From Bacteroidota bacterium (GTDB taxonomy: Bacteria; Bacteroidota; Bacteroidia; Flavobacteriales; Crocinitomicaceae): a stretch of 64,000 nucleotides of DNA. A model generated the notes under the pieces. The model made no database searches, had not been told where the DNA came from, and saw only the letters and a list, made by a program, of their open reading frames with translations. The stretch lies in contig JAKQEZ010000451.1 of the NCBI GenBank assembly GCA_029558435.1, positions 18,057 to 82,056 on the forward strand, read 5' to 3'. Below are positions 3,589 through 34,335 of this stretch, piece by piece. The position numbers were made by a program, and so were the translations under genes. Every line of letters begins with the position of its first letter. Within the stretch, counting starts at the first letter, position 1.

Positions 3589-5153
3589 CTGTATTTTTTC
3601 CCATTGATTATTAATTCGTAATTCATAATGCGTGGCCAATACATAGGGGGCATTTTTTTCATCCATTGCAATAGGTTGAGTTTTAGCGAGGTTGCATTTG
3701 GAGTGCTGATGTTGTTTAATTCATAAGGATCGGTTGCTAAATTGTAAAAATCGACGGTATTGTCTAAAGAATTGAGTATTAGTTTCTCATTTCCCTGACG
3801 GATAGCAGCATTGTAATCCGAATACCAATAAAGTGTATTTCTTTTTTCAAGAATTTTCTCGTTGGTGTTGTATTGGAGTAATGAAATTCCGTCGTATGTT
3901 CGGTCGGAGGGAAGAGGAATGTTGGCAGCGTCGGCAATGGTTGGGAATAAATCCAGGAGGCTGACGGGAGCGTTTATTTTCGTGATATCGAAATATGTCG
4001 ATATGTCGTTTTTGATGATTAAAGGCACATTTATTCCACCCTCAAAAAACGTAAATTTCCCTCCGTTAAGTGGTTTGTTATCAATTGTATTTGTGTATAA
4101 AGCAGCTCCGTTATCACTGGTGAAAATAATAAGTGTATTGTCATACAGATTGTTTGATTTTAAGTAAGTAATTAACTCTCCAATGGCGTTGTCGAGTGCT
4201 ATAATCATTGAGTAATAAACTCGTTTGTTGTGGTCGCTAATATGTGTTAACTGGTCATAAATTTCTTTAGGCGCTTGATAAGGTGTGTGGGGCGCAGTAA
4301 TAGGCAAGTAAACAAAAAACGGATTTGAAATGTTTTTGCCAATAAATTGCTTTGCTCGATTAAAAAAAGCATAGGTGATGTATTCTTTTTCATCAATGAT
4401 CACCTCATTTTCGCGAATGGCGCACGCATCTTTTCTCCCACCTTTCCAAATTACTTTATCTGTAAATTCTTTGATTTTTGCATTGACAATAGTTTTATCT
4501 TTCGGATTTGCAAAAAGTGTGTAAGCTTCTAAGCAACCATAGCGGTAGTCGAAACCAAAATTTTTGGGTAACAATGGTTCTGTATAACCAAGATGCCATT
4601 TTCCTATCCAAGCAGTTTTGTAGCCATTTGCTTTTAATAATTCAGAAATTGTTAGTTCAGATTGTGGTAAACCTGCCTTTGCAATGTTTTCTTTTGAAGG
4701 ATATTTAGCAAAATCTTCAGGGTGTAAATCGTTGGTGTTAATTAGGTGTTGAAATGCCCATAGTTCAAATTTATTTTTAGGATAACGTTGATGAGGTTGC
4801 ACATGATAACCAAAACGTTGCTGATAGCGTCCTGTCATAAATCCAGCTCTTGACGGGCTACAAACAGCAGCAGTGGCATAACTTTGATCGTATAAAACTC
4901 CATCTTTTGCTAGTTGGTCGATATGTGGAGTTTTTATAAAAGGATTGCCGTAACATGATAAGTCGTATTTCCCTAAATCATCAGCTACAATTAAAATTAT
5001 ATTTTTTGCATTCGCGTTTGGCTGTGTTGATTGCTGCAATAATTGTTGTTTATTTTGATACAAAGTTGAATCAAATGGAATGGGAGGGTAATGCTTTTCT
5101 GTTTGAGAAAACCCAATGGATGAAATAAGTGTAAAAATGATTAACGTTCTCAA
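3576..5153 (-). CDS. Secreted type I sulfatase (arylsulfatase family)
   Basis: A 525-residue sulfatase with a signal peptide (MRTLIIFTLISSIGFSQ). The metal-binding pair is ILIVADDLG (Asp58-Asp59). The modification motif is Cys98-Ser-Pro-Ser-Arg followed by GFMTGRYQ, so the nucleophile should be formylglycine made from Cys98. HIDQLAKDGV, IGKWHLG and FTSDNGA are further family landmarks. The substrate cannot be named; Bacteroidota sulfatases usually desulfate polysaccharides. The final ~15 residues (NYELIINGKKYRWAV) look unlike sulfatase and coincide with a short intergenic-type repeat. The adjacent FGE gene probably activates it. A palindrome copy lies inside the gene at 3984-4005. Confidence 0.9.
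   Translation of the reverse strand: MRTLIIFTLISSIGFSQTEKHYPPIPFDSTLYQNKQQLLQQSTQPNANAKNIILIVADDLGKYDLSCYGNPFIKTPHIDQLAKDGVLYDQSYATAAVCSPSRAGFMTGRYQQRFGYHVQPHQRYPKNKFELWAFQHLINTNDLHPEDFAKYPSKENIAKAGLPQSELTISELLKANGYKTAWIGKWHLGYTEPLLPKNFGFDYRYGCLEAYTLFANPKDKTIVNAKIKEFTDKVIWKGGRKDACAIRENEVIIDEKEYITYAFFNRAKQFIGKNISNPFFVYLPITAPHTPYQAPKEIYDQLTHISDHNKRVYYSMIIALDNAIGELITYLKSNNLYDNTLIIFTSDNGAALYTNTIDNKPLNGGKFTFFEGGINVPLIIKNDISTYFDITKINAPVSLLDLFPTIADAANIPLPSDRTYDGISLLQYNTNEKILEKRNTLYWYSDYNAAIRQGNEKLILNSLDNTVDFYNLATDPYELNNISTPNATSLKLNLLQWMKKMPPMYWPRIMNYELIINGKKYRWAV
3606..3630. repeat. Copy of an AATTCGTAATTCATAATT-type Bacteroidota repeat
   Basis: The stretch containing ATTAATTCGTAATTCATAAT resembles the short NYELRI-coding repeats often scattered in Bacteroidota intergenic DNA. 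It lies over the end of the sulfatase frame (read NYELIING) and before the FGE start (read HYELRINN in the other frame). Confidence 0.5.
3984..4005. repeat. Palindromic element, type B, inside the sulfatase gene
   Basis: Core CGAAATATGTCG flanked by GATAT and ATATG. This is the same off-centre mismatch variant as at 17234 and, inverted, at 34211. It is read in frame on the minus strand as DISTYFDIT, so it does not break the protein. Confidence 0.7.
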
Positions 5154-5204
5154 TTTGTTTGTTTTAAGTTGAAAGCAAAGATAAAATAAATCGAATTGAA
5201 TCGT

Positions 5205-5235
5205 GATATCGAAATAGTTCGATATTGCGATATGG
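5205..5235. repeat. Palindromic element, type B fused to a type A half
   Basis: Type B copy with core CGAAATAGTTCG at 5205-5226, running directly into a half type A arm (ATTGCGATATGG) ending at 5235. It lies between the divergent sulfatase and methyltransferase genes, 52 bp from the sulfatase start. The same B variant fused to a type A copy occurs at 7929-7965. Confidence 0.75.
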
Positions 5236-5302
5236 TATTATTTTACAGAAAAAAACAAATTAGATTTGAAACAAATCAGGTAGATTAACGTAATTGTATT
5301 CG

Positions 5303-6175
5303 ATGAATAATAGTGAGATTCTACATTGCATTGTGTGTGGACACAATGAGCTCATACCTTTGGACAGGTATAAGGATGCTCATTTATGTCAATGTTTAAA
5401 TTGCAGTTTGGTGTTTTCAACACAAAAGCCTAGTCACGAAGAGTTGGAAAACGAACAAAAAAAGTTGAAACGCAAGGATAGAATTACCAAGGATGCTATT
5501 AAACGCTACCATCACATTTTAGATCGATTTGAAGGTTATAGAAAAAACAATCGCTTGTTGGATTTAGATTGTAACCATGGTGAATTTTTGCAAATGGCAA
5601 AAGAGCGTGGGTGGTATGTTTATGGTACATCAGACACTGAAGAGTCTTACAATGAATGTGTAGCAAAGGGGTTAAATATGTTTAAAGGCTCTTTGAAATT
5701 AGATAATTTTGAAGACAATTATTTTGATGTTGTTTGTGCAAGAAATATTTTGGAACATCTAACCGAACCAAATGAAGAGATTAAAAAAATAAAGCGTATT
5801 ATTCGAAGAAAAGGTTTATTATATGCAACAACTCCCAATTTCAATTCATATTTGCGTTATCGGTTAAAAGAAAAATACAGTTTAATATCGTATCCACTTC
5901 GTTTGGTTTATTATTCCAGAAAACCTTTTAAGCGACTTTTTAGACAAAATGGATTTAAAGTATTAGAAACGGAAGCTCCATGGGTGAGTATTTCGAATAT
6001 ATTTGTTTCACGAGCTAAAACTCAAGTGCCTTTGACCGAAAAATCGGAGTTCAACGAAGAAGATAAAGATTTAATTGGAAAAAGATATCGCCGATTTATT
6101 AAGAGAACGTTAAATCCTGTTTTAGGGTTTTTAGGATTTGGTGATTATTTAAAGGGTTGGTTTGTGAAACTTTAG
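5303..6175 (+). CDS. Class I SAM-dependent methyltransferase with N-terminal zinc ribbon
   Basis: A 290-residue protein. The first 35 residues carry a Cys cluster (CIVCGH, then LCQCLNCSLVF) typical of the zinc ribbon found before Methyltransf_23-type domains. The SAM-binding region is LLDLDCNHGEFLQMA, a divergent motif I with His where a glycine is usual. It is followed by NYFDVVCARNILEHL, the usual motif after strand 4, and TTPNFNSY. Such proteins often act on cell-surface sugars or lipids, but the substrate is not visible here. The ATG at 5303 is chosen over an upstream TTG at 5294. It stands alone, with palindromes on both sides. Confidence 0.75.
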   Translation: MNNSEILHCIVCGHNELIPLDRYKDAHLCQCLNCSLVFSTQKPSHEELENEQKKLKRKDRITKDAIKRYHHILDRFEGYRKNNRLLDLDCNHGEFLQMAKERGWYVYGTSDTEESYNECVAKGLNMFKGSLKLDNFEDNYFDVVCARNILEHLTEPNEEIKKIKRIIRRKGLLYATTPNFNSYLRYRLKEKYSLISYPLRLVYYSRKPFKRLFRQNGFKVLETEAPWVSISNIFVSRAKTQVPLTEKSEFNEEDKDLIGKRYRRFIKRTLNPVLGFLGFGDYLKGWFVKL

Positions 6176-6188
6176 TTCTTTATTTTAC

Positions 6189-6210
6189 CATATCGTAATA
6201 TTGCGATATG
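6189..6210. repeat. Palindromic element, type A
   Basis: Inner 20 bases ATATCGTAATATTGCGATAT with flanking C and G. This is the type A consensus in inverted orientation (its complement has core CGCAATATTACG). It lies between the methyltransferase stop and cdsA. Confidence 0.75.
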
Positions 6211-6251
6211 CAAATATTTAGATAAATCATCTCAAATTCATATTTACCCAC

Positions 6252-6259
6252 TATCTTTA
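6252..6259 (+). promoter_or_regulatory. Possible -7 box for cdsA-psd
   Basis: TATCTTTA, one base off the Bacteroidota -7 consensus TAnnTTTG, 16 bp before the cdsA ATG. The -33 element is not obvious. Confidence 0.4.
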
Positions 6260-6275
6260 CCCCAAATTTTAATCT

Positions 6276-7097
6276 ATGAATAATATTCTAGTCAGAACAA
6301 TTTCTGGATCTATTTTCATTAGCTTAATACTTGTGCCTTTGTTTTTAGCAAATTACAACTATGCTATTCTTACATTGTGTGCATTTTTATTTTTGGGATT
6401 GGATGAATATGCAAATTTGTTTAAAAATTCTGCTTATATCTCAATAAACAAAACGTTGAACACTTTTTTTACTGCCATTATTGTTTCACTACTATTGTTA
6501 GTAATTGTTCCGAATCAGTTATTTGAATTTAATGCTTTAATAGCTCTGTTTCCTTTATTTTTTCTTTGGTTTTTAACAGAATTGTGGCGCAAAAAAGAAC
6601 ATCCATTGTTAAACATTGGTGTATCATTTTTTGGATTTATTTATTTGTGCATTCCATTTTTATTAGCAATTGATATCCATATTCAAGATACACATGCATT
6701 TCCAAAATTGGTTGGGATGTTTGTATTGATTTGGACCAACGATACCTTTGCATTTTTATCAGGTAAATTTTTTGGTAAACATAAATTATTTGAGCGCATT
6801 TCACCTAAAAAAACTTGGGAAGGAACTATAGGAGGAGTTTTACTAACCCTTTTAATGGCGTTTACTCTTACAGAGTTGTTTGATAAAGAAAATCAGTTGT
6901 TTTGGATGGTAAGTGCGGTTTTAATTTCAACAACTGCAATATTTGGTGATTTATTTGAATCGCTTTTCAAAAGAAGTTTAAACATAAAAGATACAGGCAA
7001 CATCATACCTGGACACGGTGGTATTTTGGATCGATTTGATGCATTTTTATTTACCGTTCCATTTTTTTATTTTTGGTGCCAAATATACTTTAACTAA
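6276..7097 (+). CDS. cdsA: Phosphatidate cytidylyltransferase
   Basis: Makes CDP-diacylglycerol from CTP and phosphatidic acid, the shared precursor for PssA (1606-2427). A 273-residue multi-pass membrane protein. The C-terminal family signature is intact: SLFKRSLNIKDTGNIIPGHGG followed by ILDRFDA. SPKKTWEGTIGG is the second conserved stretch. psd follows after 6 bp, so cdsA and psd form an operon. Confidence 0.94.
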   Translation: MNNILVRTISGSIFISLILVPLFLANYNYAILTLCAFLFLGLDEYANLFKNSAYISINKTLNTFFTAIIVSLLLLVIVPNQLFEFNALIALFPLFFLWFLTELWRKKEHPLLNIGVSFFGFIYLCIPFLLAIDIHIQDTHAFPKLVGMFVLIWTNDTFAFLSGKFFGKHKLFERISPKKTWEGTIGGVLLTLLMAFTLTELFDKENQLFWMVSAVLISTTAIFGDLFESLFKRSLNIKDTGNIIPGHGGILDRFDAFLFTVPFFYFWCQIYFN

Positions 7098-7103
7098 TAA
7101 ATT

Positions 7104-7775
7104 ATGACCATACATAGAGAAGGCTACACAATCATTTTGTCAGGATTAGTAATCACGGCATTGCTTCAATTTGGAAATTATAAATTGTATCAATTTTTAG
7201 GGTGGACGTGGTTATACATACTATTAACTCTTGGAATTTTAACACTGTTGTATTTAATAATTCAATTTTTTAGAGTTCCAAACCGTAAAGCAATTTATTA
7301 TAGCAACGATATATTATGTCCTGCCGATGGGAAAGTTGTAGTTATTGAAGAAGTTGAAGAAACAGAATATTTTAACGATAAACGTATTCAAATTTCAATT
7401 TTCATGTCGCCTTTAAATGTACATGCCAATTACAATCCAATTTCTGGAATTGTTAAATATGTAAAATACCACAAAGGTTTGTTTTTAGTAGCATGGCATC
7501 CAAAAAGTAGCACCGACAATGAACGCAGTACATTTGTTGTTCAACACGAAAGTGGACAAGAAGTATTGTTTAGACAAATTGCTGGAGCAGTTGCCCGAAG
7601 AATTTGTTACTACGCAAAAGAAAATCAGCAAGTAAAAACAGGAGAAGAGTTTGGATTTATAAAATTTGGTTCGCGCATTGATTTATTCTTGCCTTTGGGA
7701 ACCAAAATAGATGTAAATATTGGCGACGTTGTAAAAGCAAAACTGACAAAAATTGGTGAATTAAAAGTCGATTAA
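7104..7775 (+). CDS. psd: Phosphatidylserine decarboxylase family protein
   Basis: Converts phosphatidylserine to phosphatidylethanolamine. The short (223-residue) Psd type found in Bacteroidota has two membrane segments at residues ~10-55, then CPADGKVVVIEE, MSPLNVHANYNPISG and the self-cleavage site KFGSR (Gly189-Ser190). Ser190 would become the pyruvoyl cofactor after cleavage. With cdsA immediately upstream and pssA 5 kb away, the PE route is complete within the window. Confidence 0.92.
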   Translation: MTIHREGYTIILSGLVITALLQFGNYKLYQFLGWTWLYILLTLGILTLLYLIIQFFRVPNRKAIYYSNDILCPADGKVVVIEEVEETEYFNDKRIQISIFMSPLNVHANYNPISGIVKYVKYHKGLFLVAWHPKSSTDNERSTFVVQHESGQEVLFRQIAGAVARRICYYAKENQQVKTGEEFGFIKFGSRIDLFLPLGTKIDVNIGDVVKAKLTKIGELKVD

Positions 7776-7789
7776 TTACAATTTAATTA

Positions 7790-7863
7790 GGCTCCGTAGC
7801 TCAACTGTATAGAGCACTGGATTTCGGCTCCAGCGGTTGGGGGTTAGAATCCCTCCGGGGTCA
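7790..7863 (+). tRNA. tRNA-Arg (TCG) with unusual U19-A56 elbow pair
   Basis: Acceptor GGCTCCG pairs with CGGGGTC (two wobbles), discriminator A73, no encoded CCA. The anticodon stem CTGGA/TCCAG encloses TTTCGGC, giving anticodon TCG for CGA codons. The D-loop reads AACTGTATA where AACTGGATA is usual, so G19 is T. The T-loop reads TTAGAAT where TTCGAAT or similar is usual, so C56 is A. The two changes together keep a Watson-Crick pair. Confidence 0.93.
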
Positions 7864-7866
7864 CAT

Positions 7867-7903
7867 AAAAGTCAATCATTAAAGTGGTTGGCTTTTGTTT
7901 TTT
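7867..7903 (+). terminator. Terminator after tRNA-Arg
   Basis: Imperfect 12-bp stem (AAAAGTCAATCA with AGTGGTTGGCTTTT, including wobbles), a short AT loop, then GTTTTTTG. Placed to end the cdsA-psd-tRNA transcript. Confidence 0.7.
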
Positions 7904-7928
7904 GTATGATTTTTGACACAATATCGTT

Positions 7929-7965
7929 ATATCGCAATATTGCGATATCGAAATAGTTCGATATC
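7929..7965. repeat. Fused type A and type B palindromic elements
   Basis: A perfect 20-base palindrome ATATCGCAATATTGCGATAT (7929-7948) shares its last bases with a type B copy with core CGAAATAGTTCG (7944-7965). The order and B variant match the fused copy at 5205-5235. Located upstream of the K+ channel gene. Confidence 0.8.
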
Positions 7966-8031
7966 TCGATAACATAAATAAATTCAACGTTTAAAATTTA
8001 TTTATTACTTTTAGTAAGTTTTTAGCAAACC

Positions 8032-9814: not shown

Positions 9815-9816
9815 AA

Positions 9817-9845
9817 AAGACTGACCAGCATTGCCAATCAGTCTT
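9817..9845 (-). terminator. Terminator between convergent lipoprotein gene and serS
   Basis: 8-bp perfect stem AAGACTGA / TCAGTCTT with a 13-base loop. The A run at 9813-9818 becomes a T run on the minus strand, so it mainly ends serS. Readout on the plus strand has only a weak T tract. Confidence 0.75.
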
Positions 9846-9869
9846 AATTTATTTCAATTTTATGTTTTT

Positions 9870-17233: not shown

Positions 17234-17255
17234 AATATCGAAATATGTCGATATC
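17234..17255. repeat. Palindromic element, type B
   Basis: Core CGAAATATGTCG, identical to the copy inside the sulfatase gene (3984). It lies between dinB and tRNA-Leu. Confidence 0.75.
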
Positions 17256-17317
17256 AGTAAATTTCTAAAAAAATCAAATTTTTTATCAAATAGTATAAAT
17301 ATATATGATTTTTTACT

Positions 17318-17325
17318 TACATTTG
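17318..17325 (+). promoter_or_regulatory. -7 promoter box of tRNA-Leu(CAA)
   Basis: TACATTTG, an exact TAnnTTTG match, 17 bp before the tRNA 5' end. Confidence 0.6.
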
Positions 17326-17342
17326 CACCCAGATTTTGAAAA

Positions 17343-17424
17343 GCCCGAGTGGCGGAACTGGTAGACGCGCTGGATTCAAAATCCTGTTCTTTCGGGAGTG
17401 CCGGTTCGATTCCGGCCTCGGGTA
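17343..17424 (+). tRNA. tRNA-Leu (CAA)
   Basis: Class II tRNA with a long variable arm. Acceptor GCCCGAG pairs with CTCGGGT (G1-T72 wobble), discriminator A, no CCA. The anticodon loop TTCAAAA gives CAA. The anticodon stem CTGGA/TCCTG has a T28-T42 mismatch. T-arm GCCGG TTCGATT CCGGC is normal. Confidence 0.95.
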
Positions 17425-17425
17425 C

Positions 17426-18211: not shown

Positions 18212-18610
18212 TTAGGTTTTAAATAATAAAGAAGTATTGAGGATATTTTTATATTTTGAATAAAAGTTATTTGTATTCCTGTTTCCACTCATTAGAGTAA
18301 TTTTAGAAATAACTTGCTGTAGAATTTGAATACCTTCATAGTTTAATTGATATGCTAAACAACTTTTTTTATTTCTTGTAATAATTTTAGTAGCAATTAA
18401 ACCAGAATCGGATAAGATATTTAAATGACGAGAAATTGAAGATTGTGATAATTCTATTTCATTTTGAAAATCTTCTGTTGTTACTGTTTTTTGCTCGCTT
18501 TCAGCAAGCATTAGTAATGCTTTAACTCTAGCAGGATTGGATAATGCTTTGAAAAGACTAGCTAGTTCATTAATTTCCGTAGAGTGAACTTCATGTTTAG
18601 TTGCTCCCAT
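18212..18610 (-). CDS. ArsR-family winged-helix regulator (MGATK paralogue 1)
   Basis: 132 residues. Starts MGATKHEVHSTEINELASLF, then a winged-helix domain (LFKALSNPARVKALLML, ELSQSSISRHLNILSDSGLI, wing NKKSCLAYQLN). No Cys pair that would indicate metal sensing in the usual ArsR position. A paralogue with the same MGATK start and NKKSCLKYRLN-type wing lies at 25831-26283. A 36-bp perfect palindrome begins 81 bp upstream of its start. The target is unknown. Confidence 0.82.
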   Translation of the reverse strand: MGATKHEVHSTEINELASLFKALSNPARVKALLMLAESEQKTVTTEDFQNEIELSQSSISRHLNILSDSGLIATKIITRNKKSCLAYQLNYEGIQILQQVISKITLMSGNRNTNNFYSKYKNILNTSLLFKT

Positions 18611-18690: not shown

Positions 18691-18726
18691 TTTCGCAATA
18701 TCGAAATATTTCGATATTGCGAAAAC
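18691..18726. repeat. 36-bp perfect palindrome with type B core
   Basis: Each arm is 18 bases (TTTTCGCAATATCGAAAT and its exact complement), so the whole 36 bases are a perfect inverted repeat. The centre is the symmetric type B core CGAAATATTTCG, and the outer arm repeats the CGCAATAT of type A. It lies in the 127-bp gap between purF's stop and the first ArsR-like gene. It could also act as a weak bidirectional hairpin (A/T-rich ends). Confidence 0.85.
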
Positions 18727-21610: not shown

Positions 21611-22824
21611 TGAGATTTATCTACACATTAGGAGTTGTATTGTATGCTTTAGGTGTTAGAGTAGCATCTATTTTTCTTCCAAAAGCAAAGGAATGGGTAG
21701 ATGGTAGAAATAATTTTTGGAATCAACTTCCAGATATTTCTAATAAAAAAGTTTATTGGTTCCATTGTGCATCATTAGGAGAGTTTGACCAAGGATTGCC
21801 GGTAATGAACCTAATTAGAAAAAATGACCCTGAAATTTTTATCTTAGTTACGTTCTTTTCGCCTTCAGGATATAAACATTACAATAAAAGAAAAAATCCG
21901 GTAGATTATGCTTGTTATCTGCCGATTGATACAAAAGCAAATGCACAAAAGTTTGTAAAGCACTTTCAACCAAAAACTGTTTTTTTTGTGAAATATGAAT
22001 TTTGGGCAAATTATATTTTTGAAATTAAAAAGCAGAAGTGTCAATTATATTCTTTAAGTACTTTATTGCGACCAAAACACCATTTTTTTAAATGGTATGG
22101 AAGCTTTTTTAGAGAAATACTACATCAATTTGATTACTTTTTTGTGCAAGACCAACAAACATTTGATTTGCTAAGGTCAATAAACATCAACAAAGCAATA
22201 ATAACTGGAGATACGAGGTTTGATCGGGTTATTGAGAATAAAAACAATCTTGTTCTGGATGAGATAATAAGTGATTTTGTAGGTGAAAGTAAATCAGTTT
22301 TTATTGCAGGTAGTACATGGCAGAAAGATGTGGAGTTAATAAAGCCTATAATTGGGAGTAGTATGTTTGAAAAGTATATTATAGTTCCGCATAATGTAGA
22401 TGAGGTATCAATTAAATCATTAACTAGTTTTCTTGATATCGTAATATTGCGATATAGCGATTTAAAGGATCATTCTAGCACAATTTCAAATGTATTAATT
22501 GTTGACACCATTGGTCTTTTAGCATCTGCTTATTCTTTTGGAACTATAGCTTATGTAGGAGGTGGTTTTTCAAAAAGTTTACATAATATTCTAGAACCAG
22601 CTGTGTTCGGATTGCCTGTAATTTTTGGTCCTGTTTACAACAGGTTTCCAGAAGCTCAGGCATTTATTGATAACGGTATTGGGTTTTCTGTGAAAGAATC
22701 AGATGAACTATCACAAACAATAGAATCAATTAAGATGAAAATTGATGAAATTCAAAGTAAAAGCAGTCAATTTATTGAAAGTAACAAAGGGGCGTCACAA
22801 AAAATAATAGCTTATTTAAGCTAA
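21610..22824 (+). CDS. waaA: 3-deoxy-D-manno-octulosonic acid (Kdo) transferase
   Basis: 404-residue GT30 glycosyltransferase that adds Kdo to lipid A at the inner membrane. N-terminal anchor followed by WFHCASLGEFDQGLPVMN, FVKYEFWANYIFEI, GDTRFDRV, FIAGSTWQKD and the C-terminal AYVGGGFSKSLHNILEPAVFG. ATG at 21610 rather than the TTG one codon upstream. A type A palindrome is embedded in frame at 22436-22455, read as IVILRYSD. Its end overlaps the convergent YihY gene by 9 bp. Confidence 0.92.
   Translation: MRFIYTLGVVLYALGVRVASIFLPKAKEWVDGRNNFWNQLPDISNKKVYWFHCASLGEFDQGLPVMNLIRKNDPEIFILVTFFSPSGYKHYNKRKNPVDYACYLPIDTKANAQKFVKHFQPKTVFFVKYEFWANYIFEIKKQKCQLYSLSTLLRPKHHFFKWYGSFFREILHQFDYFFVQDQQTFDLLRSININKAIITGDTRFDRVIENKNNLVLDEIISDFVGESKSVFIAGSTWQKDVELIKPIIGSSMFEKYIIVPHNVDEVSIKSLTSFLDIVILRYSDLKDHSSTISNVLIVDTIGLLASAYSFGTIAYVGGGFSKSLHNILEPAVFGLPVIFGPVYNRFPEAQAFIDNGIGFSVKESDELSQTIESIKMKIDEIQSKSSQFIESNKGASQKIIAYLS
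22436..22455. repeat. Palindromic element, type A, inside waaA
   Basis: ATATCGTAATATTGCGATAT, identical to the inner 20 bases of the intergenic copy at 6189. It encodes IVILRYS in a segment between the two Rossmann halves' conserved motifs. Confidence 0.8.
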
Positions 22825-25830: not shown

Positions 25831-26283
25831 TTAGTTGCTTTCTGAGGAATTTATTTGATATGTGTTAGGGCTTAACTTAAATAAATTTAACCTATATAGA
25901 TTAATGTTATTTTGATAGAATCCCTTCAGTGCACTTAATCGTTCATTTTCATTTAAATCAACTTTATCGTTTATGTGGTTGATAAGTTTTTCAAGAAACT
26001 CAAATGCTGTTTTGTTAAGACGATATTTTAAACAGCTTTTATTTCTATTTTTTGTTAGCTTAGTTTTTATAATGCCAGCTTCTATCAGCTGCTTTAAATG
26101 AACAGATTTTGTAGATTGTGCGAGGTTAATATTTTTGAAAATTTCATCAAAAGTTAATTCATCTCCCCCAGCTTCGATGAGACTTTCAATAGCAGCGAAT
26201 CTTGCAGGATGAGCAATTGACTTAAAAAAGTTTGCGAATTGAATCTGACGTTCTGTATACGCCTCATATTTTGTGGCTCCCAT
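25831..26283 (-). CDS. ArsR-family winged-helix regulator (MGATK paralogue 2)
   Basis: 150 residues. Begins MGATKYEAYTERQIQFANFF, then SIAHPARFAAIESLI, NLAQSTKSVHLKQLIEAGII and wing NRNKSCLKYRLN. It is homologous along its length to the protein at 18212-18610. First gene in the minus-strand run to radC (29-bp gap). A type A palindrome begins 76 bp upstream. The regulated genes are unknown. Confidence 0.82.
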   Translation of the reverse strand: MGATKYEAYTERQIQFANFFKSIAHPARFAAIESLIEAGGDELTFDEIFKNINLAQSTKSVHLKQLIEAGIIKTKLTKNRNKSCLKYRLNKTAFEFLEKLINHINDKVDLNENERLSALKGFYQNNINLYRLNLFKLSPNTYQINSSESN

Positions 26284-26358: not shown

Positions 26359-26378
26359 ATATCGCTATATTACGATAT
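26359..26378. repeat. Palindromic element, type A variant
   Basis: ATATCGCTATATTACGATAT, one base different from the type A consensus, followed by GG as in other A copies. It lies in the divergent region between the second ArsR-like gene and dut. Confidence 0.7.
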
Positions 26379-26476: not shown

Positions 26477-26501
26477 TTTGTTATTGTAAATAATCATAAT
26501 C

Positions 26502-26936
26502 ATGAAAGTTAAAATAATCAATCAGTCCAAGCATTCTATTCCTAAATATGAAACAATTTTCTCTGCTGGTATGGATGTTAGGGCAAATTTGAATGAGCCA
26601 ATTACTCTAGAACCATTTCAACGAGCATTGATTAAAACTGGATTGTTTATTGAGTTGCCACAAGGTTATGAGTGTCAAGTTCGCCCAAGAAGTGGCTTAG
26701 CGTTTAAAAATGGAATTACGGTTTTAAACTCACCGGGTACAATAGATGCGGATTATAGAGGAGAAATTGGAGTAATATTAATTAATTTATCCAATGAAGC
26801 TTTTGTAGTAAATGACGGTGAAAGAGTAGCTCAGTTGGTGTTTGCAAAATACGAACAAGCAGAATTTGTTGAAGTAGATGTGCTTTCAGATACACAACGT
26901 GGAACTGGTGGGTTTGGAAGTACAGGTGTTAAATAA
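26502..26936 (+). CDS. dut: dUTP diphosphatase
   Basis: Hydrolyses dUTP to dUMP. 144 residues with all five trimeric dUTPase motifs in order: [36 protein letters not shown] and the C-terminal [10 protein letters not shown] arm. First gene of a conserved Bacteroidota cluster with the nucleotidyltransferase, TPR, DUF4292 and EnvC-like genes. Confidence 0.96.
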
Positions 26937-26948
26937 AAAATTAGAAAA

Positions 26949-27959: not shown

Positions 27960-29659
27960 AAAAAATACTTCTAATAGCTTTAATTGGGATAATATCTGTG
28001 GCTTGTGCAACTAAAAAAAATAGTAATCAAGCAAGCATACATTCACAAGCAAGTTTTTCCTATATTGAGGCATTTCATAAAGGGATGCGCTTAAAAATAA
28101 AAGGAGATTCTGATGCTGCAATTGAAGCATTTCAGAAGTGTTTAAATATGCGTAAAGATGATGATGCTGTTTTTTATGCGTTATCTCAGCTGTATGTTGC
28201 TAAAAAAGATTATCAGCAGGCAGTATCCATGATTGAGTCAGCTAATAAAATAGATCCAAAAAATATTTGGTATACTGAACAATTGGCAAATTTGAATTAT
28301 GGACTAAAACAATACGATAAAGCTGCTATTTACTTCAAAAAATTAGTAGAATATGAGCCTAAGAATATCGATTGGTTATATGGCTATGGTGATTGTTTGT
28401 TGAAAAATGGTAAAGTTGAGGAGGCAATTTCAATTATTAATAAAGCTGAGGTTGTTTTAGGAAAAAATCCAAGTCTGTCAATTGAAAAGTTTAATTTATA
28501 CAAGTCAATTAAGAAAGATAAAGAAGCAATTGCTGAATTAGAATCTATTTTAAAAGAATACCCTCAAGAACCTCAGGTTATTGCAACACTGGCAGATTAT
28601 TATTTTAGTAAAGGAAATGTTGAAAAAGGAGTTGGTTACTTAACTCAATTAGTTGCAGCTGATCCTGAAAATGGCAGAGCTCACTTAGCTTTAGGAGAAA
28701 TTTATAGAAAACAAAAAAAGGTAGATGAAGCTTTTGAACAATTTTTAGCAGCTTTTAAATGCGAAGATGTTGATGTAGACACGAAAATGAGTTTATTGAT
28801 AGAACTACAAGAAAGCCCTTTGTCATCACATCCAAAAACATTAGAATTAGTTGATTTAATGGTTGACTTACATCCAGAAAGTGCTAAATCCAATTCAATA
28901 AAAGGAGATTATTTATTGGCAAAAGGTCAAGAAAAAGAAGCATTGGTTTATTATAAAAAAGCATTAGATACTGAAAAATCTCAATTTCCTATTTGGAATC
29001 AAGTAATGGTTTTAGAGTACCAATATCTAATGTGGAATGATTTGTTTGAAGATAGCAAGCAATGTTTAAACTATTTCCCGAATTTACCTATTGTTTATTT
29101 ACTTAATGGAACGAGTAGTATAGAGCTCAATAAACCTAATGAAGCAATTGATGTATTGACTACAGGAAAAGCATTTGTTATCAACAACAAAGGGATGGAA
29201 GCTGAATTTATGGCTCAAATTGGGGAAGCAAATTTTATGCTTAAAAATATTAAAGAAGGTAAAAAGTGGTATGAAGATGCGATTAAACTTGATCCATCAA
29301 GCAATCATCTGAAAAACAACTATGCTAATCGTTTAGCAATTGCAAAGATTGATTTTGATTTGGCTTTTAGCTTAATAAATCAGTCAATTTCTAACTCTCC
29401 CACCATATCGCAATATTACGATACGAGAGGATGGATTTATTTTCAACAAGCCAAGTATTCTCAAGCCCTTGAAGACTATTTAAAAGCTTTTGAATTGGAA
29501 AGCACCAATGCGCTATACATTGAACACCTTGGAGATGTATACAGCAAATTAAACCAAAAAGATAAAGCTCTTCAATATTGGCAAAAAGCTGTTGAATTGG
29601 GTGTTGAAAAGGATGTTTTGAAGAAAAAAATTGCAACGGGCACCTATCATGAAGAGTAG
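27956..29659 (+). CDS. TPR-repeat lipoprotein
   Basis: 567 residues: lipoprotein signal (LIGIISVACATKKN, Cys18) followed by about twelve tetratricopeptide repeats, e.g. ALSQLYVAKKDYQQAVSMIE and WIYFQQAKYSQALEDYLKAF. An envelope scaffold protein; its exact role is unknown. It overlaps the next gene by 11 bp. A type A palindrome at 29405-29424 lies in frame and encodes ISQYYDT at the start of a late repeat. Confidence 0.85.
   Translation: MKKILLIALIGIISVACATKKNSNQASIHSQASFSYIEAFHKGMRLKIKGDSDAAIEAFQKCLNMRKDDDAVFYALSQLYVAKKDYQQAVSMIESANKIDPKNIWYTEQLANLNYGLKQYDKAAIYFKKLVEYEPKNIDWLYGYGDCLLKNGKVEEAISIINKAEVVLGKNPSLSIEKFNLYKSIKKDKEAIAELESILKEYPQEPQVIATLADYYFSKGNVEKGVGYLTQLVAADPENGRAHLALGEIYRKQKKVDEAFEQFLAAFKCEDVDVDTKMSLLIELQESPLSSHPKTLELVDLMVDLHPESAKSNSIKGDYLLAKGQEKEALVYYKKALDTEKSQFPIWNQVMVLEYQYLMWNDLFEDSKQCLNYFPNLPIVYLLNGTSSIELNKPNEAIDVLTTGKAFVINNKGMEAEFMAQIGEANFMLKNIKEGKKWYEDAIKLDPSSNHLKNNYANRLAIAKIDFDLAFSLINQSISNSPTISQYYDTRGWIYFQQAKYSQALEDYLKAFELESTNALYIEHLGDVYSKLNQKDKALQYWQKAVELGVEKDVLKKKIATGTYHEE
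29405..29424. repeat. Palindromic element, type A, inside the TPR gene
   Basis: ATATCGCAATATTACGATAC, type A consensus except for the last base, preceded by CC. It is read in frame as ISQYYDT, where the Tyr and Asp fit ordinary TPR helix A positions. Confidence 0.75.
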
Positions 29660-30416
29660 GGTTTACATATTATTTGCCCTTAGTGCAGCATTGTTTGGTC
29701 AGTCTTGTGCAAAAAAAATGACCGAAGGCACTGTTATTTTACCAGGACATAATAGCGAAGATGCTGTTGAAGTATTAGATAGTATTCAAAAAAACACACC
29801 TTATTTCCTTTCTTCAAAAATTGATACAAGATACACAGATAATAAACAGAATATAAGCTTTAAAACTTCTTTACGCATGAGTAAAGACACATCTATTTGG
29901 GCTTTGTTTACTTATGCTGGAGTTCCTTTGATTACAAATTATATAACAAAAGATTCTATTCAAATTTCCAATAAAAAAGAAAAGTGTTATATCAAAGATA
30001 GTCGCAATTTTATTGCCCGAAATTTTAAGATTGATTTGAGTTTGGGTGACTTACAAAGCGTATTTTTAGGTCAACCATTGAAATATAATAAGTTACTTAA
30101 TTATAATTTGAATTCAACTAGTAATCAAATTATCATATCGAATGTTGAGAATAAACGCTATTTCCTTACTTATTTCATTGATAAAGTAAGTAAGCGTATA
30201 AATTCAATAGAATATACCGATCAAGAAATTAAACTAAAAATAAGCTATTTAGATTATTGGATTCAAGATCAATACAGTATTCCCAAAAACATTAAAATTG
30301 AAATAAATAAATCCAATAATAATATTACAGTTGATTTAAACGTTGAAAAAATAGAAATAAACCAACCAAAAGAAATGGTTGTTGTTATACCAGAGTCCTA
30401 TGAAAAATGTAATTAG
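29649..30416 (+). CDS. DUF4292 lipoprotein
   Basis: 255 residues from the ATG at 29649 (an upstream TTG at 29631 is unlikely). Lipoprotein signal MKSRVYILFALSAALFGQSC. The body resembles DUF4292: KIDTRYTDNKQNISFKTSLRMSKD, then WALFTYAGVPLITNYIT and FNARNF-like segments, a LolA/LolB-like curved beta sheet. Overlaps the TPR gene (11 bp) and the EnvC-like gene (17 bp), so these proteins probably act together at the envelope. Confidence 0.82.
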   Translation: MKSRVYILFALSAALFGQSCAKKMTEGTVILPGHNSEDAVEVLDSIQKNTPYFLSSKIDTRYTDNKQNISFKTSLRMSKDTSIWALFTYAGVPLITNYITKDSIQISNKKEKCYIKDSRNFIARNFKIDLSLGDLQSVFLGQPLKYNKLLNYNLNSTSNQIIISNVENKRYFLTYFIDKVSKRINSIEYTDQEIKLKISYLDYWIQDQYSIPKNIKIEINKSNNNITVDLNVEKIEINQPKEMVVVIPESYEKCN

Positions 30417-31713
30417 TTGTTTAATATTTATTATTGTTTCGGTTTTTGCAAGTGCTCAATCAAAGAGTGAAAAGTTGAAAAATGAACAAAAGCAATTAGA
30501 AAAAAATATTGCTAATACTAAATTGTTGCTTGAAAAAACAAAATCAAGTAAAGCATCATCATTTAATGAATTACAACTATTAAACAATCAAATTGCATAT
30601 CGCGAACAGTTGGTAAGTAATTACGATAACCAAATTAGAGGAGCTGAGTATAAAATTAAAGAAAAGCAAGCGCAAGTTGACCGTTTAAATGACGAAATGC
30701 AAGAGTTAAAAGATCAATACAAAAAATTATTGCTTTATGCCTATAAACATCGTAATAAATATGGAAAAATGATGTTTATTTTTTCTTCAGATTCGTATTA
30801 TGAGGCTGTAAAAAGGTCAAAATACCTTGAAAAAATTCAAGATTTAGTGCAAAAACAATTTTTAGTTATAGAGCAACATAAAAAGATGATTGCAAGCGAG
30901 GTGAAAGCTATTGAAACAGAACGCAATCATAAGATGGTCATGCTAGATGAGAAAAAAGCTGAACGAGAAAAAATACTTATTGATCAACAAAAGCAGCAGC
31001 AAGTTTATCAGAATCTTAAGTCTCAAGAAGCTCAAATATTAGCAAAATTAAGAGAAGAAGAACAAAGAAAGATAAACCTAAAAGCACAAATTAATGCGGC
31101 CATAAAAAAAGAAATTGCAGAGGCAGAAGCAAAAAGGTTGAAGGCTGAGAAAGAGGCTAAGAAAAAAGAAAGTGCAACAAAGTCTAAAACTTCCACAGGA
31201 ACTTCTACAGCACCTGTAAAAGAAACACCATCTACACCTTCAAAATCAGTTGAATCGTTACCTGAAACAAAAGAAAGTATCGCTTTAAGCAAAAGTTTTG
31301 AAGGAAACAGAGGTAAATTACCTTGGCCTGTTGAAAAAGGTTCAATTACTGAAGGTTATGGGAAAAATCCGCATCCATCAATACCTGGGGTTTTTACTAA
31401 TAACAATGGTGTTGATATATCAGCCCCAAAAAATGCACAAGTGCGAGCAGTATTTAGCGGTGAAGTTACTTCAATAATAAATATACCTGGATCTGGAAAA
31501 GTTGTAATTATAAAACATGGAAACTATAGAACTGTTTATAGTAACTTGAATAGTACTTTTGTTAGTGTTGGTTCAATTGTTTCAACTAAGCAAGTGATTG
31601 GTTCTCTGGTGGGTAGTGATGGCCAATCTTTATCAACTTCTCATTTTGAAATTCACCAAGTTGTTGATAATAGTGTTACCAGTTTAAATCCTAGTTTATG
31701 GTTGAGTCGCTAA
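30400..31713 (+). CDS. EnvC-like murein hydrolase activator (degenerate LytM/M23)
   Basis: 437 residues: signal peptide (CLIFIIVSVFASAQ), a long coiled coil to about residue 245, a Lys/Ser/Thr-rich linker and a C-terminal LytM domain (PWPVEKGSITEGYG onward). The zinc ligands are partly lost: the first HxxxD is NNNGVD, and the HxH is SHFEIH with Ser in place of the first His. It is probably not a peptidase and more likely activates an amidase, as EnvC does in division. Last gene of the dut cluster. Confidence 0.87.
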   Translation: MKNVISCLIFIIVSVFASAQSKSEKLKNEQKQLEKNIANTKLLLEKTKSSKASSFNELQLLNNQIAYREQLVSNYDNQIRGAEYKIKEKQAQVDRLNDEMQELKDQYKKLLLYAYKHRNKYGKMMFIFSSDSYYEAVKRSKYLEKIQDLVQKQFLVIEQHKKMIASEVKAIETERNHKMVMLDEKKAEREKILIDQQKQQQVYQNLKSQEAQILAKLREEEQRKINLKAQINAAIKKEIAEAEAKRLKAEKEAKKKESATKSKTSTGTSTAPVKETPSTPSKSVESLPETKESIALSKSFEGNRGKLPWPVEKGSITEGYGKNPHPSIPGVFTNNNGVDISAPKNAQVRAVFSGEVTSIINIPGSGKVVIIKHGNYRTVYSNLNSTFVSVGSIVSTKQVIGSLVGSDGQSLSTSHFEIHQVVDNSVTSLNPSLWLSR

Positions 31714-31761
31714 ATAATTTATATTCTTTCTAAATAACTTTCAATTGGCTTAAAAAAATAT

Positions 31762-31769
31762 TATTTTTG
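31762..31769 (+). promoter_or_regulatory. -7 promoter box of feoAB
   Basis: TATTTTTG, exact TAnnTTTG match, 25 bp before the feoA ATG. No Fur box was recognised. Confidence 0.5.
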
Positions 31770-31793
31770 TGCTAAATTTTTAGAAGGGTATAA

Positions 31794-32027
31794 ATGGCTA
31801 GTGATTTCATTAAACTATCAAAAGCTAAAATTGGCGATAATCTAGTTGTTCATTCAGTATGTGGTGATGACTTAAGAGCTCAATTGTTGGAAATGGGTTT
31901 GACAATGGGAAGTAAAGTTCAAAAATTATATACTGCGCCTTTTGGTGATCCTATTGCTATTGATGTTGAAGGGTTTGTACTTTCATTACGAAAATCAGAA
32001 GCAGATTTAATTCTAGTTACCAATTAA
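31794..32027 (+). CDS. feoA: Ferrous iron transport protein A
   Basis: 77-residue SH3-like protein (LSKAKIGDNLVVHSV, LLEMGLTMGSKVQKL, GDPIAIDVEGFVLSLRKSEAD). An accessory of FeoB at the inner face of the membrane. feoB follows after 11 bp. Confidence 0.93.
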   Translation: MASDFIKLSKAKIGDNLVVHSVCGDDLRAQLLEMGLTMGSKVQKLYTAPFGDPIAIDVEGFVLSLRKSEADLILVTN

Positions 32028-32038
32028 TCTTTTAGTTA

Positions 32039-34006
32039 ATGAAAATTGCACTCCTTGGAAATCCAAATACGGGCAAGAGTTCCATATTTAATTTACTTAC
32101 AGGACTAAGACAACAAGTAGGTAATTTTGCTGGTGTTACTGTAGAAAAACGTCAAGGAATACTAAATATTGACGGAGAAGAACATCAAGTAATTGATTTT
32201 CCAGGAACTTATAGTATTTATCCACATTCAGAAGATGAAAGAATCGTATATAATGTGCTCTCCAATAAAAATAATGCACATCATCCAGATTTATGTATTG
32301 TAGTTTTAGATGCATCTAACCTAAGAAGAAATTTGTTTTTGTTTACTCAAGTCTATGATTTAGGTTTTTCTACAATTATGGTTTTAAACATGATGGATAT
32401 AGCTGAAAAAAATAGAATTGGCATATCTATCGATGAATTAAAAAAACAATTTCCAAATACACAAATTGTTACTACAAATGCCCGTGTTAAAATGGGTAAA
32501 ATGAGAATATTTGATGCAATTAAAAAAGTAACTAAATCTGAAAATAAACACCACTTTTTAGAACCAATCTCAATTTCTACTGCTGATGATGTAGAAAAAC
32601 AAGAAGTTGAAGCCGAAGCACGATATTCAAAAATTGATGAAGTATTACCATCAATTTTAACTAAAAAGCAAGACAAAATAACTAATGAAACTAGAAGCAA
32701 TAAGGTGGATAAGATTTTAACTCATCCGTTCTGGGGATATTTTATCTTTTCACTCATTTTATTAGTAATATTTCAATTTATTTTTTCTTTTGCATCCGTC
32801 CCAATGGACTTCATTGAAGAACAATTTGGTAATTTATCTATATGGATGTCAGAATTACTTCCAGCAGGTATTTTCAATGATTTGTTAACTAAAGGCATCA
32901 TACCTGGAATTGGTGGAGTTGCTGTTTTTGTACCTCAAATTGCTATTTTATTTTTCTTTTTAACAGTATTAGAGGAAACAGGTTATATGGCACGGGTGGT
33001 CTTTATTATGGATCGCCTCATGCGCCCTTTTGGATTGAACGGAAAAAGCGTAGTTCCACTTATATCCGGTGCAGCATGTGCAATTCCGGCTGTTATGGCA
33101 ACAAGAACCATATCTGATTGGAAAGAAAGAATGACAACAATTATGGTTACCCCTTTAATTAGTTGCTCTGCTAGAATTCCTGTTTATACTCTTTTAATAT
33201 CATTAGTAATTCCAGAAAAAACAGTGTTAGGGTTCATAAATCTTCAAGGATTAGTATTGTTCGGATTGTATGCGCTTGGTGTTGTTTCTGCTCTTGGTGT
33301 GGCTTTTTTACTAAAATTTATAATTAAAGCTAAAGAAAAAAAGAAAAGCTATTTATTAATGGAGATTCCTGCATATAAACAACCTCGTTGGGGTAATGTG
33401 GGTATTACTGTTTTTGAAAAAGTTAAATTATTCATCTTAGATGCGGGAAAAATAATTTTAGCTATTTCAATTATTTTATGGGCGTTGGCTTCTTATGGTC
33501 CTGGCGAGAGGATGGAACAAGCGGTTGCTAAAACAGAAGTTTATGCACATAAAAACAACATTGATGAAGATGCAAAAGCAGATATGATAGCTAGTGCACA
33601 ACTAGAAAATTCATACATCGGTATAATGGGTAAATTTATTGAACCAGCCATTGCTCCACTTGGTTATGACTGGAAAATGGGGATTTCTTTAATTACCTCA
33701 TTTGCTGCTCGAGAAATTTTTGTTGGTTCATTAGCTACCATCTATTCAACACATGATGACGGTGGTGAAAACATTCCACTAAAACAAAAATTATTGAAAG
33801 AAAAACATGCTGATGGAACTCCCGTTTACTCTTTAGCTTCTGGTATGTCATTACTCATCTTCTATGTATTTGCAATGCAATGTATGGCTACTATGGCTGT
33901 TGTTAAACGTGAAACTGGAAGTTGGAAATGGACACTAGGACAGCTCGTGCTATTCGATTTTATTGCCTATGTTGGTGCTTTTGTTACATTTCATTTATTA
34001 AAATAA
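32039..34006 (+). CDS. feoB: Ferrous iron transporter B
   Basis: 655 residues. GTPase domain: G1 GNPNTGKSSIFN, G3 DFPGTYS, G4 LNMMD. Then a helical domain and the membrane region with the Gate motifs (GYMARVVFIMDRLMRPFGL..., SGAACAIPAVMATRT, and SCSARIPVYTLL). Takes up Fe2+ across the inner membrane. Co-transcribed with feoA and the small protein directly after it. Confidence 0.95.
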   Translation: MKIALLGNPNTGKSSIFNLLTGLRQQVGNFAGVTVEKRQGILNIDGEEHQVIDFPGTYSIYPHSEDERIVYNVLSNKNNAHHPDLCIVVLDASNLRRNLFLFTQVYDLGFSTIMVLNMMDIAEKNRIGISIDELKKQFPNTQIVTTNARVKMGKMRIFDAIKKVTKSENKHHFLEPISISTADDVEKQEVEAEARYSKIDEVLPSILTKKQDKITNETRSNKVDKILTHPFWGYFIFSLILLVIFQFIFSFASVPMDFIEEQFGNLSIWMSELLPAGIFNDLLTKGIIPGIGGVAVFVPQIAILFFFLTVLEETGYMARVVFIMDRLMRPFGLNGKSVVPLISGAACAIPAVMATRTISDWKERMTTIMVTPLISCSARIPVYTLLISLVIPEKTVLGFINLQGLVLFGLYALGVVSALGVAFLLKFIIKAKEKKKSYLLMEIPAYKQPRWGNVGITVFEKVKLFILDAGKIILAISIILWALASYGPGERMEQAVAKTEVYAHKNNIDEDAKADMIASAQLENSYIGIMGKFIEPAIAPLGYDWKMGISLITSFAAREIFVGSLATIYSTHDDGGENIPLKQKLLKEKHADGTPVYSLASGMSLLIFYVFAMQCMATMAVVKRETGSWKWTLGQLVLFDFIAYVGAFVTFHLLK

Positions 34007-34007
34007 A

Positions 34008-34124
34008 ATGCAAGTAGTCTTAGTTATATCATGTATCGCCTTAGCAGTTTTCTTTATTGGAAGAAAGCTGTACCGAGAATGGAAAGGGGAAAACCCAGGA
34101 GGTGGCTGTAATAAATGTCATTAA
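34008..34124 (+). CDS. FeoB-associated Cys-rich membrane protein (38 residues)
   Basis: ATG one base after the feoB stop. The protein has one membrane helix (VVLVISCIALAVFFIG), then RKLYREWKGENPGGGC and a final CNKCH. The pattern of one helix plus a terminal C-x2-C matches the small FeoB-associated proteins that stand where FeoC stands in other phyla. Possible roles are iron-sulfur or redox sensing on the FeoB complex; this is inference. Confidence 0.8.
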   Translation: MQVVLVISCIALAVFFIGRKLYREWKGENPGGGCNKCH

Positions 34125-34138
34125 TTTTAAATATCGTC

Positions 34139-34158
34139 ATATCGCAATATTACGATAT
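34139..34158. repeat. Palindromic element, type A
   Basis: ATATCGCAATATTACGATAT followed by GG, preceded by a further ATATCGTC. The first of three copies in the 280-bp gap between the feo operon and tRNA-Leu, which otherwise shows no gene. Confidence 0.8.
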
Positions 34159-34210
34159 GGTGTTTTTTATATTTTAAAAAGTGGGATGTATCACTTTAAG
34201 AAATATCATT

Positions 34211-34232
34211 GATATCGACATATTTCGATATT
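34211..34232. repeat. Palindromic element, type B (inverted)
   Basis: Core CGACATATTTCG, the reverse complement of the CGAAATATGTCG variant at 3984 and 17234. Second copy in the feo/tRNA gap. Confidence 0.75.
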
Positions 34233-34315
34233 GAAAATTGAAAATTTTTTCAGATTAAATATTATCTAAAACATTTAGTATCAAAACAAAATAACCATTT
34301 TTCGATTATATCTTC

Positions 34316-34335
34316 ATATCGCAATATTACGATAT
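34316..34335. repeat. Palindromic element, type A
   Basis: ATATCGCAATATTACGATAT, identical to the copy at 34139. This is the last copy in the window; none was seen in the following 29.6 kb. Confidence 0.8.

What the first reader, a model, noticed from the sequence alone, without database searches (positions are those of the whole stretch)
3984..34335. Dispersed family of two related AT-rich palindromes, 12 loci in 30 kb
Seen: type A (core ATATCGCAATATTACGATAT) at 6189, 7929, 22436, 26359, 29405, 34139, 34316 and half a copy at 5222; type B (core ATATCGAAATATTTCGATAT) at 3984, 5205, 7944, 17234, 18691, 34211. The same imperfect cores recur: CGAAATATGTCG three times (once inverted), CGAAATAGTTCG twice, CGCAATATTACG in both orientations. 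Shared mismatches point to copying, not to chance or convergent selection for perfect hairpins. Two loci carry A and B fused end to end. None was seen from 34.34 to 64 kb, the highly expressed half. I do not know this family; it resembles REP/RPE-type elements in kind but not in sequence. Possible roles: a non-autonomous mobile palindrome, a regulator site, or a nucleoid/methylation site.
Basis: partly seen in the sequence, partly recalled or inferred. Interest (0 to 1): 0.72.

Follow-up and report, generated by a model that had tools for sequence, protein, structure and literature searches.

The report
Regulator-centred clusters of ArsR operators
The repeated palindromes look like binding sites for two small DNA-binding proteins encoded among them; in related Bacteroidota several such proteins each seem to have their own version of the site, scattered mainly around their own gene and often away from promoters.

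Summary
The palindromes are real: 13 sites in 3.98-34.34 kb, about 0 expected. Two ArsR-type genes lie among them, each with a site about 100 bp upstream. Of 21 testable derived regulators read (the window's two included), 16 have such a site with at most one mismatch, 94-148 bp upstream. The ordinary ArsR of the family has a related operator: 41 of 43 matches in 41 of 100 genomes lie just upstream of it. Derived genomes have several paralogues and up to 34 sites, concentrated within 25 kb of regulator genes in 6 of 7 genomes, not in G062. Cores are more alike within than between territories (pooled p 2e-4; alone clear in 2 of 5 genomes). Of 11 assessable window sites, relative G001 keeps 3 in place, has 1 altered and lacks 7; the four it has carry another core. 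Of 77 non-own sites, 25 lie in coding sequence and 20 between convergent genes (7.9 expected). Best reading: autoregulated, territory-specific chromosome-binding proteins descended from an ArsR repressor. The site-regulator link is strong by comparison; the architectural role is inferred.

The parts
18212..18610 (-). ArsR-type (HTH_5) regulator 'B', 132 aa, MGATKHEVHST..., no CxC pair, extended C-terminal tail
   Evidence: translation; HTH_5, 36.3 bits, cut-off 22
18698..18717 (.). perfect type-B palindrome, putative operator of regulator B (TATCG starts 106 bp before its ATG)
25831..26283 (-). ArsR-type (HTH_5) regulator 'A', 150 aa, MGATKYEAYTE...
   Evidence: (29.1 bits, cut-off 22); AlphaFold model
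26359..26378 (.). type-A palindrome, putative operator of regulator A (94 bp before its ATG); the same place in G001 has core GGATATTCC
3985..4004 (.). type-B site inside a sulfatase-like CDS; G001 has a one-mismatch site of another core at the same offset
5206..5225 (.). type-B site (divergent intergenic), followed by half a type-A copy to 5233; absent in G001
6190..6209 (.). type-A site 15 bp after a methyltransferase-like gene; a site follows the orthologous gene in G001, G014 and G034
7929..7948 (.). type-A site after tRNA-Arg; no site after the corresponding tRNA gene in G001
7945..7964 (.). type-B site overlapping the previous one by 4 bases (16-bp offset); absent in G001
17235..17254 (.). 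type-B site 25 bp after a dinB-like gene, before tRNA-Leu; absent beside both flanks in G001
22436..22455 (.). type-A site inside a CDS; no orthologous DNA fetched
29405..29424 (.). type-A site inside a TPR-like CDS; orthologues lack the left half, difference by substitutions
34139..34158 (.). type-A site in the convergent gap after a feoB-like gene; a site follows feoB also in G001, G014 and G034 with other cores
34212..34231 (.). type-B site, same gap; lies in a stretch that is shorter in G001, absent there
34316..34335 (.). type-A site, same gap, 69 bp from tRNA-Leu(-); absent in G001

Best explanation
The palindromes are binding sites of two paralogous ArsR-type winged-helix proteins encoded at 18212-18610 (type B) and 25831-26283 (type A). 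Each binds ATATCG-NNNTANNN-CGATAT as a dimer and controls its own gene. It also binds further copies scattered over tens of kilobases around its own gene, most of them not at promoters. The family arose when the ordinary ArsR repressor of these Bacteroidota, which has one operator, was duplicated, lost its cysteine pair, gained a C-terminal tail and diverged in core specificity. The likely job is regional chromosome binding (local compaction, anchoring or shielding through the tail), working like MatP or SlmA but with several proteins, each with a territory around its gene. Shown by comparison: the site-regulator link, the concentration around regulator genes, territory-specific cores (clear in two genomes and pooled), half-site conservation between close species, and placement biased away from promoters. 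Inferred: dimer binding, own-gene control, the tail as a docking peptide, the architectural role.
For: Upstream sites: of 22 derived regulators read, 1 (G001:C5) is cut by its contig end; of the other 21, 12 have an exact TATCG-N8-CGATA 94-148 bp before the start, 4 one with a single mismatch, 5 only 2-3 mismatch resemblances. Ancestral state: TATCGTAATATTGCAATA has 43 matches in 41 of 100 family genomes, 41 of them at most 200 bp upstream of an ArsR hit. Concentration, non-own sites within 25 kb of a derived regulator: G001 7 of 17 (0.69 expected), G014 17 of 31 (2.4), G034 12 of 32 (1.4), G050 5 of 10 (0.14), G016 4 of 8 (0.25), G036 4 of 6 (0.18), p 1e-11 to 6e-5. Core similarity within territories 0.823, between 0.690, permutation p 2e-4 over 5 genomes. 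Half-sites 264 of 270 letters identical between G014 and G034, non-coding flanks 77.5%. Context with ORFs under 300 bp ignored: 25 CDS, 25 tandem, 7 divergent, 20 convergent; expected 30.6, 13.4, 7.9 for the last three, 18 of 25 tandem sites are nearer the upstream gene's end (p 0.04). Sites stay after the methyltransferase and feoB genes in four genomes, although the gene beyond the site differs between window/G001 and G014/G034. The orthologous A regulators form one clade (98/95) while territory cores differ: window CAATATTAC, G001 GGATATTCC, G014/G034 mostly CAATAATGC. G001 keeps 3 of 6 assessable A sites but none of 5 B sites as type B, and there the B regulator lies on another contig. Further half-sites stand in 8-bp register: TATCG at -8 in 30 and CGATA at -3 in 15 of 176 oriented flanks, 0-7 elsewhere in the flank.
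Against: No binding or expression was measured. Of 11 assessable window sites, 7 are absent in G001 (5206, 7929, 7945, 17235, 29405, 34212, 34316), so single sites turn over fast. G062 has 0 of 6 exact sites near its one regulator counted (a second hit, C16, was left out, and no exact site is on that contig). In G014 14 of 31 and in G034 20 of 32 non-own sites are not within 25 kb of a found regulator (contig breaks explain some). Within-territory similarity alone is not significant in G034 (p 0.12), G016 (0.31) and G036 (0.058). Five of 21 derived regulators lack a good upstream site. Recognition-helix residue 61 tracks the core only loosely. The G014-G034 count is biased: G034 DNA was fetched around its sites, 6 of 33 G014 sites found no counterpart, one aligned pair (G014:C48:83545 with G034:C27) is between paralogous regulators. 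Sites avoid coding sequence overall (25 of 77, about 68 expected from 88% coding). Gene calls come from a simple ORF picker that misplaced at least two sites (G016:C7:57070, an own-promoter site; G001:C1:222600, in the feoB gap).
Confidence: 0.53

Rival explanations
1. Local regulon: the ArsR proteins are plain transcription regulators whose targets lie close to the regulator gene; sites in CDS and at gene ends act as roadblocks or on antisense and internal promoters.
For: Own-promoter sites and the ancestral single operator show repressor descent. 32 of 77 non-own sites (25 tandem, 7 divergent) lie in gaps upstream of at least one gene. Several window sites neighbour tRNA genes. Fast turnover of single sites is common for operators (general knowledge).
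Against: Convergent gaps are enriched (20 against 7.9) and divergent ones depleted (7 against 13.4); 25 of 77 in CDS. The window neighbours share no obvious pathway (by eye). Two sites present in four genomes stay with a gene's 3' end while the gene beyond differs.
Confidence: 0.3
2. Transcription-end elements: the palindromes, bare or protein-bound, stop transcription at gene 3' ends.
For: 3'-end and convergent bias; three window sites overlap terminator-like patterns.
Against: Only 6 of 31 site-gene-end pairs have TTTTT within 20 nt downstream; terminator-like patterns in 3500-36000 are no more frequent than in shuffles; many cores are imperfect palindromes; sites in CDS.
Confidence: 0.1
3. 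A non-autonomous mobile palindrome of the REP/RPE/MITE kind.
For: Dispersed short palindromes with shared imperfect cores; 7 of 11 assessable window sites absent in G001, two of them in a stretch of 204 bases that is 51 bases in G001; one Y1 transposase gene in each of 3 relatives.
Against: Concentration around ArsR genes and presence upstream of them; kept sites have cores changed in concert; 29405 differs by substitutions; no site in L156 or L157.
Confidence: 0.05

Closest known systems
ArsR/SmtB family repressors (HTH_5), including the CICG-type ArsR of the same bacteria
   Same: Domain and fold (BigR 3pqj, NolR 4omz, CzrA), palindromic AT-rich operator, own-promoter site
   Different: No CIC/CVC pair in the derived regulators looked at, longer C-terminal tail, several paralogues per genome, dozens of sites, over half of them in CDS or convergent gaps, grouped around the regulator genes
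MatP/matS and SlmA (macrodomain-specific proteins of E. coli)
   Same: Short motif repeated within one chromosome region, in coding and intergenic DNA, and a transcription-factor relative in SlmA (passages of PMC3116907 seen: matS 23 times within Ter; SlmA sites mainly in coding regions, SlmA related to TetR)
   Different: ArsR domain and another motif; several paralogues, each with sites around its own gene; relation to ter or division untested
REP/RAYT and Rickettsia palindromic elements (recalled)
   Same: Dispersed short palindromes, some inside genes
   Different: No sites beside the two Y1 genes read; link to ArsR genes; cores changed in concert at kept places

Membership tests
ArsR/SmtB (HTH_5) regulators | HTH_5 domain above the Pfam cut-off | tested here: met
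   36.3 and 29.1 bits, cut-off 22
ArsR/SmtB (HTH_5) regulators | winged-helix ArsR fold | tested here: met
   (regulator A only): mean pLDDT 75.9, residues 127-150 under 50; best PDB matches BigR and other ArsR proteins, E from 1.4e-5
metal-sensing ArsR (NCBIfam HTH_metalloreg) | score over the curated cut-off of 55 | tested here: not met
   50.1 and 38.5 bits
metal-sensing ArsR (NCBIfam HTH_metalloreg) | CIC/CVC cysteine pair | tested here: not met
   absent in the two window translations and in the derived loci L041-L046, L048, L050 (text search)
MatP/matS | MatP domain and matS motif | tested here: not met
   no MatP family among hits up to 1e-3; matS as quoted differs from ATATCGNNNTANNNCGATAT
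macrodomain-type proteins (works like) | sites concentrated in a chromosome region | tested here: met
   6 of 7 genomes at 25 kb; G062 not
macrodomain-type proteins (works like) | effect on chromosome compaction, segregation or division | not testable with these tools
   needs experiments
REP/RAYT | Y1 transposase gene flanked by the palindromes | tested here: not met
   one Y1 gene in each of 3 genomes; no exact site in the 3345 bases of L156 or L157; the G001 copy was not read
RPE / mobile palindrome | site present as an insertion relative to empty orthologous loci | tested here: inconclusive
   29405 aligns without a site-sized gap in G001 (not an insertion); 5206 lies in a gapped non-coding stretch; 34212 and 34316 lie in a stretch that G001 lacks in part

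The most novel reading that the evidence does not exclude
A bacterial chromosome with addressed territories: a set of paralogous ArsR-derived proteins, each encoded inside the stretch it marks, reads its own version of one palindrome there, shares a docking tail for a common partner, and can have its set of addresses rewritten in concert with its recognition helix.
Probability: 0.3. Interest if true: 0.92.

Novelty: new variant of a known kind. Interest (0 to 1): 0.75.

Why it matters
It offers a natural series in which a DNA-binding protein and many of its sites changed specificity together, so the coevolution of a regulator with dozens of sites becomes testable. If the sites organise the chromosome, it would be the first system known to me in which several paralogues each bind around their own gene (recalled; the searches listed no paper on one, in an open-access library only), and it would bear on why a DNA-binding protein is encoded next to its sites.

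Tried and rejected
Mobile palindrome: disfavoured, not excluded. RNA element: Rfam finds only four tRNAs in 1-40000. Terminator: weak. A one-residue specificity code at position 61 of the recognition helix: E goes with G-first cores in G001:C1 and G016:C11, but less in G016:C7, G036:C13 and G062:C57, and Q regulators at G014:C8 and G034:C24 also have G-first cores, so it is only suggestive. A promoter box shared by the own-promoter regions: none (TANNTTTG scan). Origin: dnaA is on G001:C1 at 470 kb, 196-307 kb from that contig's exact sites, and on contigs C3 (G014) and C33 (G034), which bear no exact site; the place relative to ori and ter stays unknown. Virus scan for the exact type-A core: 0. 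PADLOC hits are to Csa3, CARF and one PDC model, over the winged-helix part. Literature: listings; passages of PMC3116907 and PMC3985651 (not useful); no paper was read in full.

For this I lowered the best explanation from 0.55 to 0.53 and raised the mobile element from 0.03 to 0.05.
Full report
OBSERVATION. At up to 3 mismatches the type-B core finds 13 places between 3985 and 34335 and nothing after; the type-A core finds the same 13 and two overlapping ones shifted by 8 bases. Shuffles give 0.00 and 0.01. The window is 34% GC, with four tRNA genes among the sites; ribosomal-protein-like and rpoBC-like genes at its end are named by eye. Its nearest named relative by synteny is the Crocinitomicaceae MAG JAMLHA (G001): 52 reciprocal best protein pairs, median identity 83%.

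THE REGULATORS. Two proteins in the site region, 18212-18610 and 25831-26283, both on the minus strand, begin MGATK and carry an HTH_5 (ArsR) domain over the Pfam cut-off; they are 37% identical over 104 residues. The perfect type-B site lies 106 bp before the start of the first, a type-A site 94 bp before the second. An AlphaFold model of the second (mean pLDDT 75.9, residues 127-150 under 50) matches BigR, NolR and CzrA in the PDB; helix 56-68 is the likely recognition helix (inference from the fold).

THE LINK IN RELATIVES. G001 has three hits to the B regulator at E 0.01 or better and 19 sites of TATCGNNNTANNNCGATA; the two others of its genus held here have 34 and 33; the reversed control has 0 in all three. 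Of 24 regulators read from fetched DNA and the window, 22 are of the derived kind. One is cut by a contig end. Of the other 21, 12 have an exact site and 4 a one-mismatch site 94-148 bp upstream; 5 have only 2-3 mismatch resemblances (G034:C41, G034:C6, G014:C51, G014:C34, G034:C24). The CICG-type ArsR of the family has TATCGTAATATTGCAATA mostly 27-37 bp upstream: 14 of the 28 loci read have the exact string, one of them at -174. In 100 family genomes the string has 43 matches in 41 genomes; 41 lie at most 200 bp upstream of an ArsR hit, the other two in genomes without a hit there (the pairing was done on positions copied from those answers). So one operator for one repressor looks ancestral and the many-site state derived. 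Any exact 20-mer site occurs in 11 of 100 family genomes and 15 of 249 sampled from the order, five or more in 6 of those 249.

TERRITORIES. Leaving out own-promoter sites (under 200 bp), sites within 25 kb of a derived regulator are 7 of 17 in G001 (0.69 expected), 17 of 31 in G014 (2.4), 12 of 32 in G034 (1.4), 5 of 10 in G050 (0.14), 4 of 8 in G016 (0.25), 4 of 6 in G036 (0.18) and 0 of 6 in G062 (0.04) (other radii are in the same calls). The last four genomes were counted with the 20-mer. Expected values take a uniform genome. Cores are more alike within than between territories (0.823 against 0.690, p 2e-4 over five genomes; alone: G001 0.001, G014 0.0002, G036 0.058, G034 0.12, G016 0.31). 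In G001 the G-first sites lie on C1 at 163-274 kb around the regulator at 214 kb, plus one each on C15 and C22 and a poorer one on C3; A- and B-type sites lie on C5, C8 and C12; the other two regulators are on C5 and C12.

CONSERVATION AND REWRITING. The window is syntenic with G001 C1 172-252 kb. Three sites (6190, 26359, 34139) keep all half-site letters in G001, the last at the end of an alignment; one (3985, inside a sulfatase-like gene) has a one-mismatch site at the same offset; seven are absent: 5206 and 29405 by alignment, 7929, 7945 and 17235 by their flanks, 34212 and 34316 because G001 has 51 bases where the window has 204; 18698 and 22436 could not be assessed. By type, 3 of 6 assessable A sites are kept and 0 of 5 B sites as type B; the B regulator of G001 lies on another contig, so the sites seem to follow the regulator. 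In all four kept or altered sites the core differs. The first core letter is G in 9 of 10 half-sites on G001 C1 and 0 of 26 in the window (Fisher p 1e-7; half-sites are not independent). The orthologous A regulators of window, G001, G014 and G034 form one clade (98/95). Sites after the methyltransferase-like gene and after feoB are present in all four genomes while the gene beyond differs between window/G001 and G014/G034. Between G014 and G034, 27 of 33 fetched sites aligned (one with a paralogous locus); half-site letters 264 of 270 identical, core 184 of 216, non-coding flanks 2985 of 3853, coding flanks 1012 of 1188. This count is biased upward because G034 DNA was fetched around its own sites. 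In G016-G036 the half-sites are 71 of 80, in G016-G062 45 of 50.

PLACEMENT. In WIN, G001, G014, G016 and G050 (near relatives G034, G036, G062 left out), the count with ORFs of 210 bp and more gave 27 CDS, 25 tandem, 7 divergent, 19 convergent, 9 own-promoter and 1 contig-edge site, with 30.6, 13.1 and 7.3 expected for the intergenic classes; 18 of the 25 tandem sites are nearer the upstream gene's end (p 0.04). Two sites were misplaced by spurious ORFs. With ORFs under 300 bp ignored and the known own-promoter site moved: 25 CDS, 25 tandem, 7 divergent, 20 convergent (expected 30.6, 13.4, 7.9), 10 own-promoter, 1 edge; with ORFs under 450 bp ignored, convergent 21 against 10.2. About 88% of the sequence counts as CDS, so sites avoid genes but not gene ends. 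Flanks carry further half-sites in 8-bp register, which suits side-by-side dimers.

MECHANISM. Shown by comparison: the palindromes belong to these regulators, gather near them, are under constraint between close species, and are biased away from promoters. Inferred: dimer binding, own-gene control, a shared tail (FYS...W...F.T in most derived paralogues of G014 and G034, and in several of the homologues) as a docking peptide, and regional chromosome binding as the main task. MatP and SlmA are the nearest working analogues, not relatives. A local regulon remains the main rival.

LIMITS. No genome is held for the window, all relatives but one are unnamed, and most are fragmented. Gene names such as feoB, dinB and sulfatase are mine by eye from the translations.

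Noticed in passing
window 7790-7964, 17235-17425, 34139-34571: Three of the site groups lie beside tRNA genes (Arg; Leu; Leu-Gly).
   Followed up: partly
window 6190, 7929, 17235, 34139: Synteny breaks next to these sites: at 7929 and 17235 against G001 (about 20 kb lie in G001 between the tRNA-Arg and the ion-channel-like gene), at 6190 and 34139 against G014/G034.
   Followed up: no
window 34160-34363: 204 bases with two sites where G001 has 51; the type-A copies at 34139 and 34316 could have served as repeats for a loss or gain.
   Followed up: partly
G014:C4:13924 and 13932; G011:C1:852439 and 852447: The CICG-type ArsR can have two overlapping operators shifted by 8 bases.
   Followed up: partly
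G288: A further genome of the order with five exact 20-mer sites on five contigs; its regulators were not looked at.
   Followed up: no
G207:C13:107817 and 533204: Two identical perfect palindromes ATATCGGTATATACCGATAT 425 kb apart, with another core.
   Followed up: no
window 25831-26283: Regulator A is 70% identical to its G001 orthologue, against a median of 83% for the 52 pairs, so it changes faster than most neighbours.
   Followed up: partly
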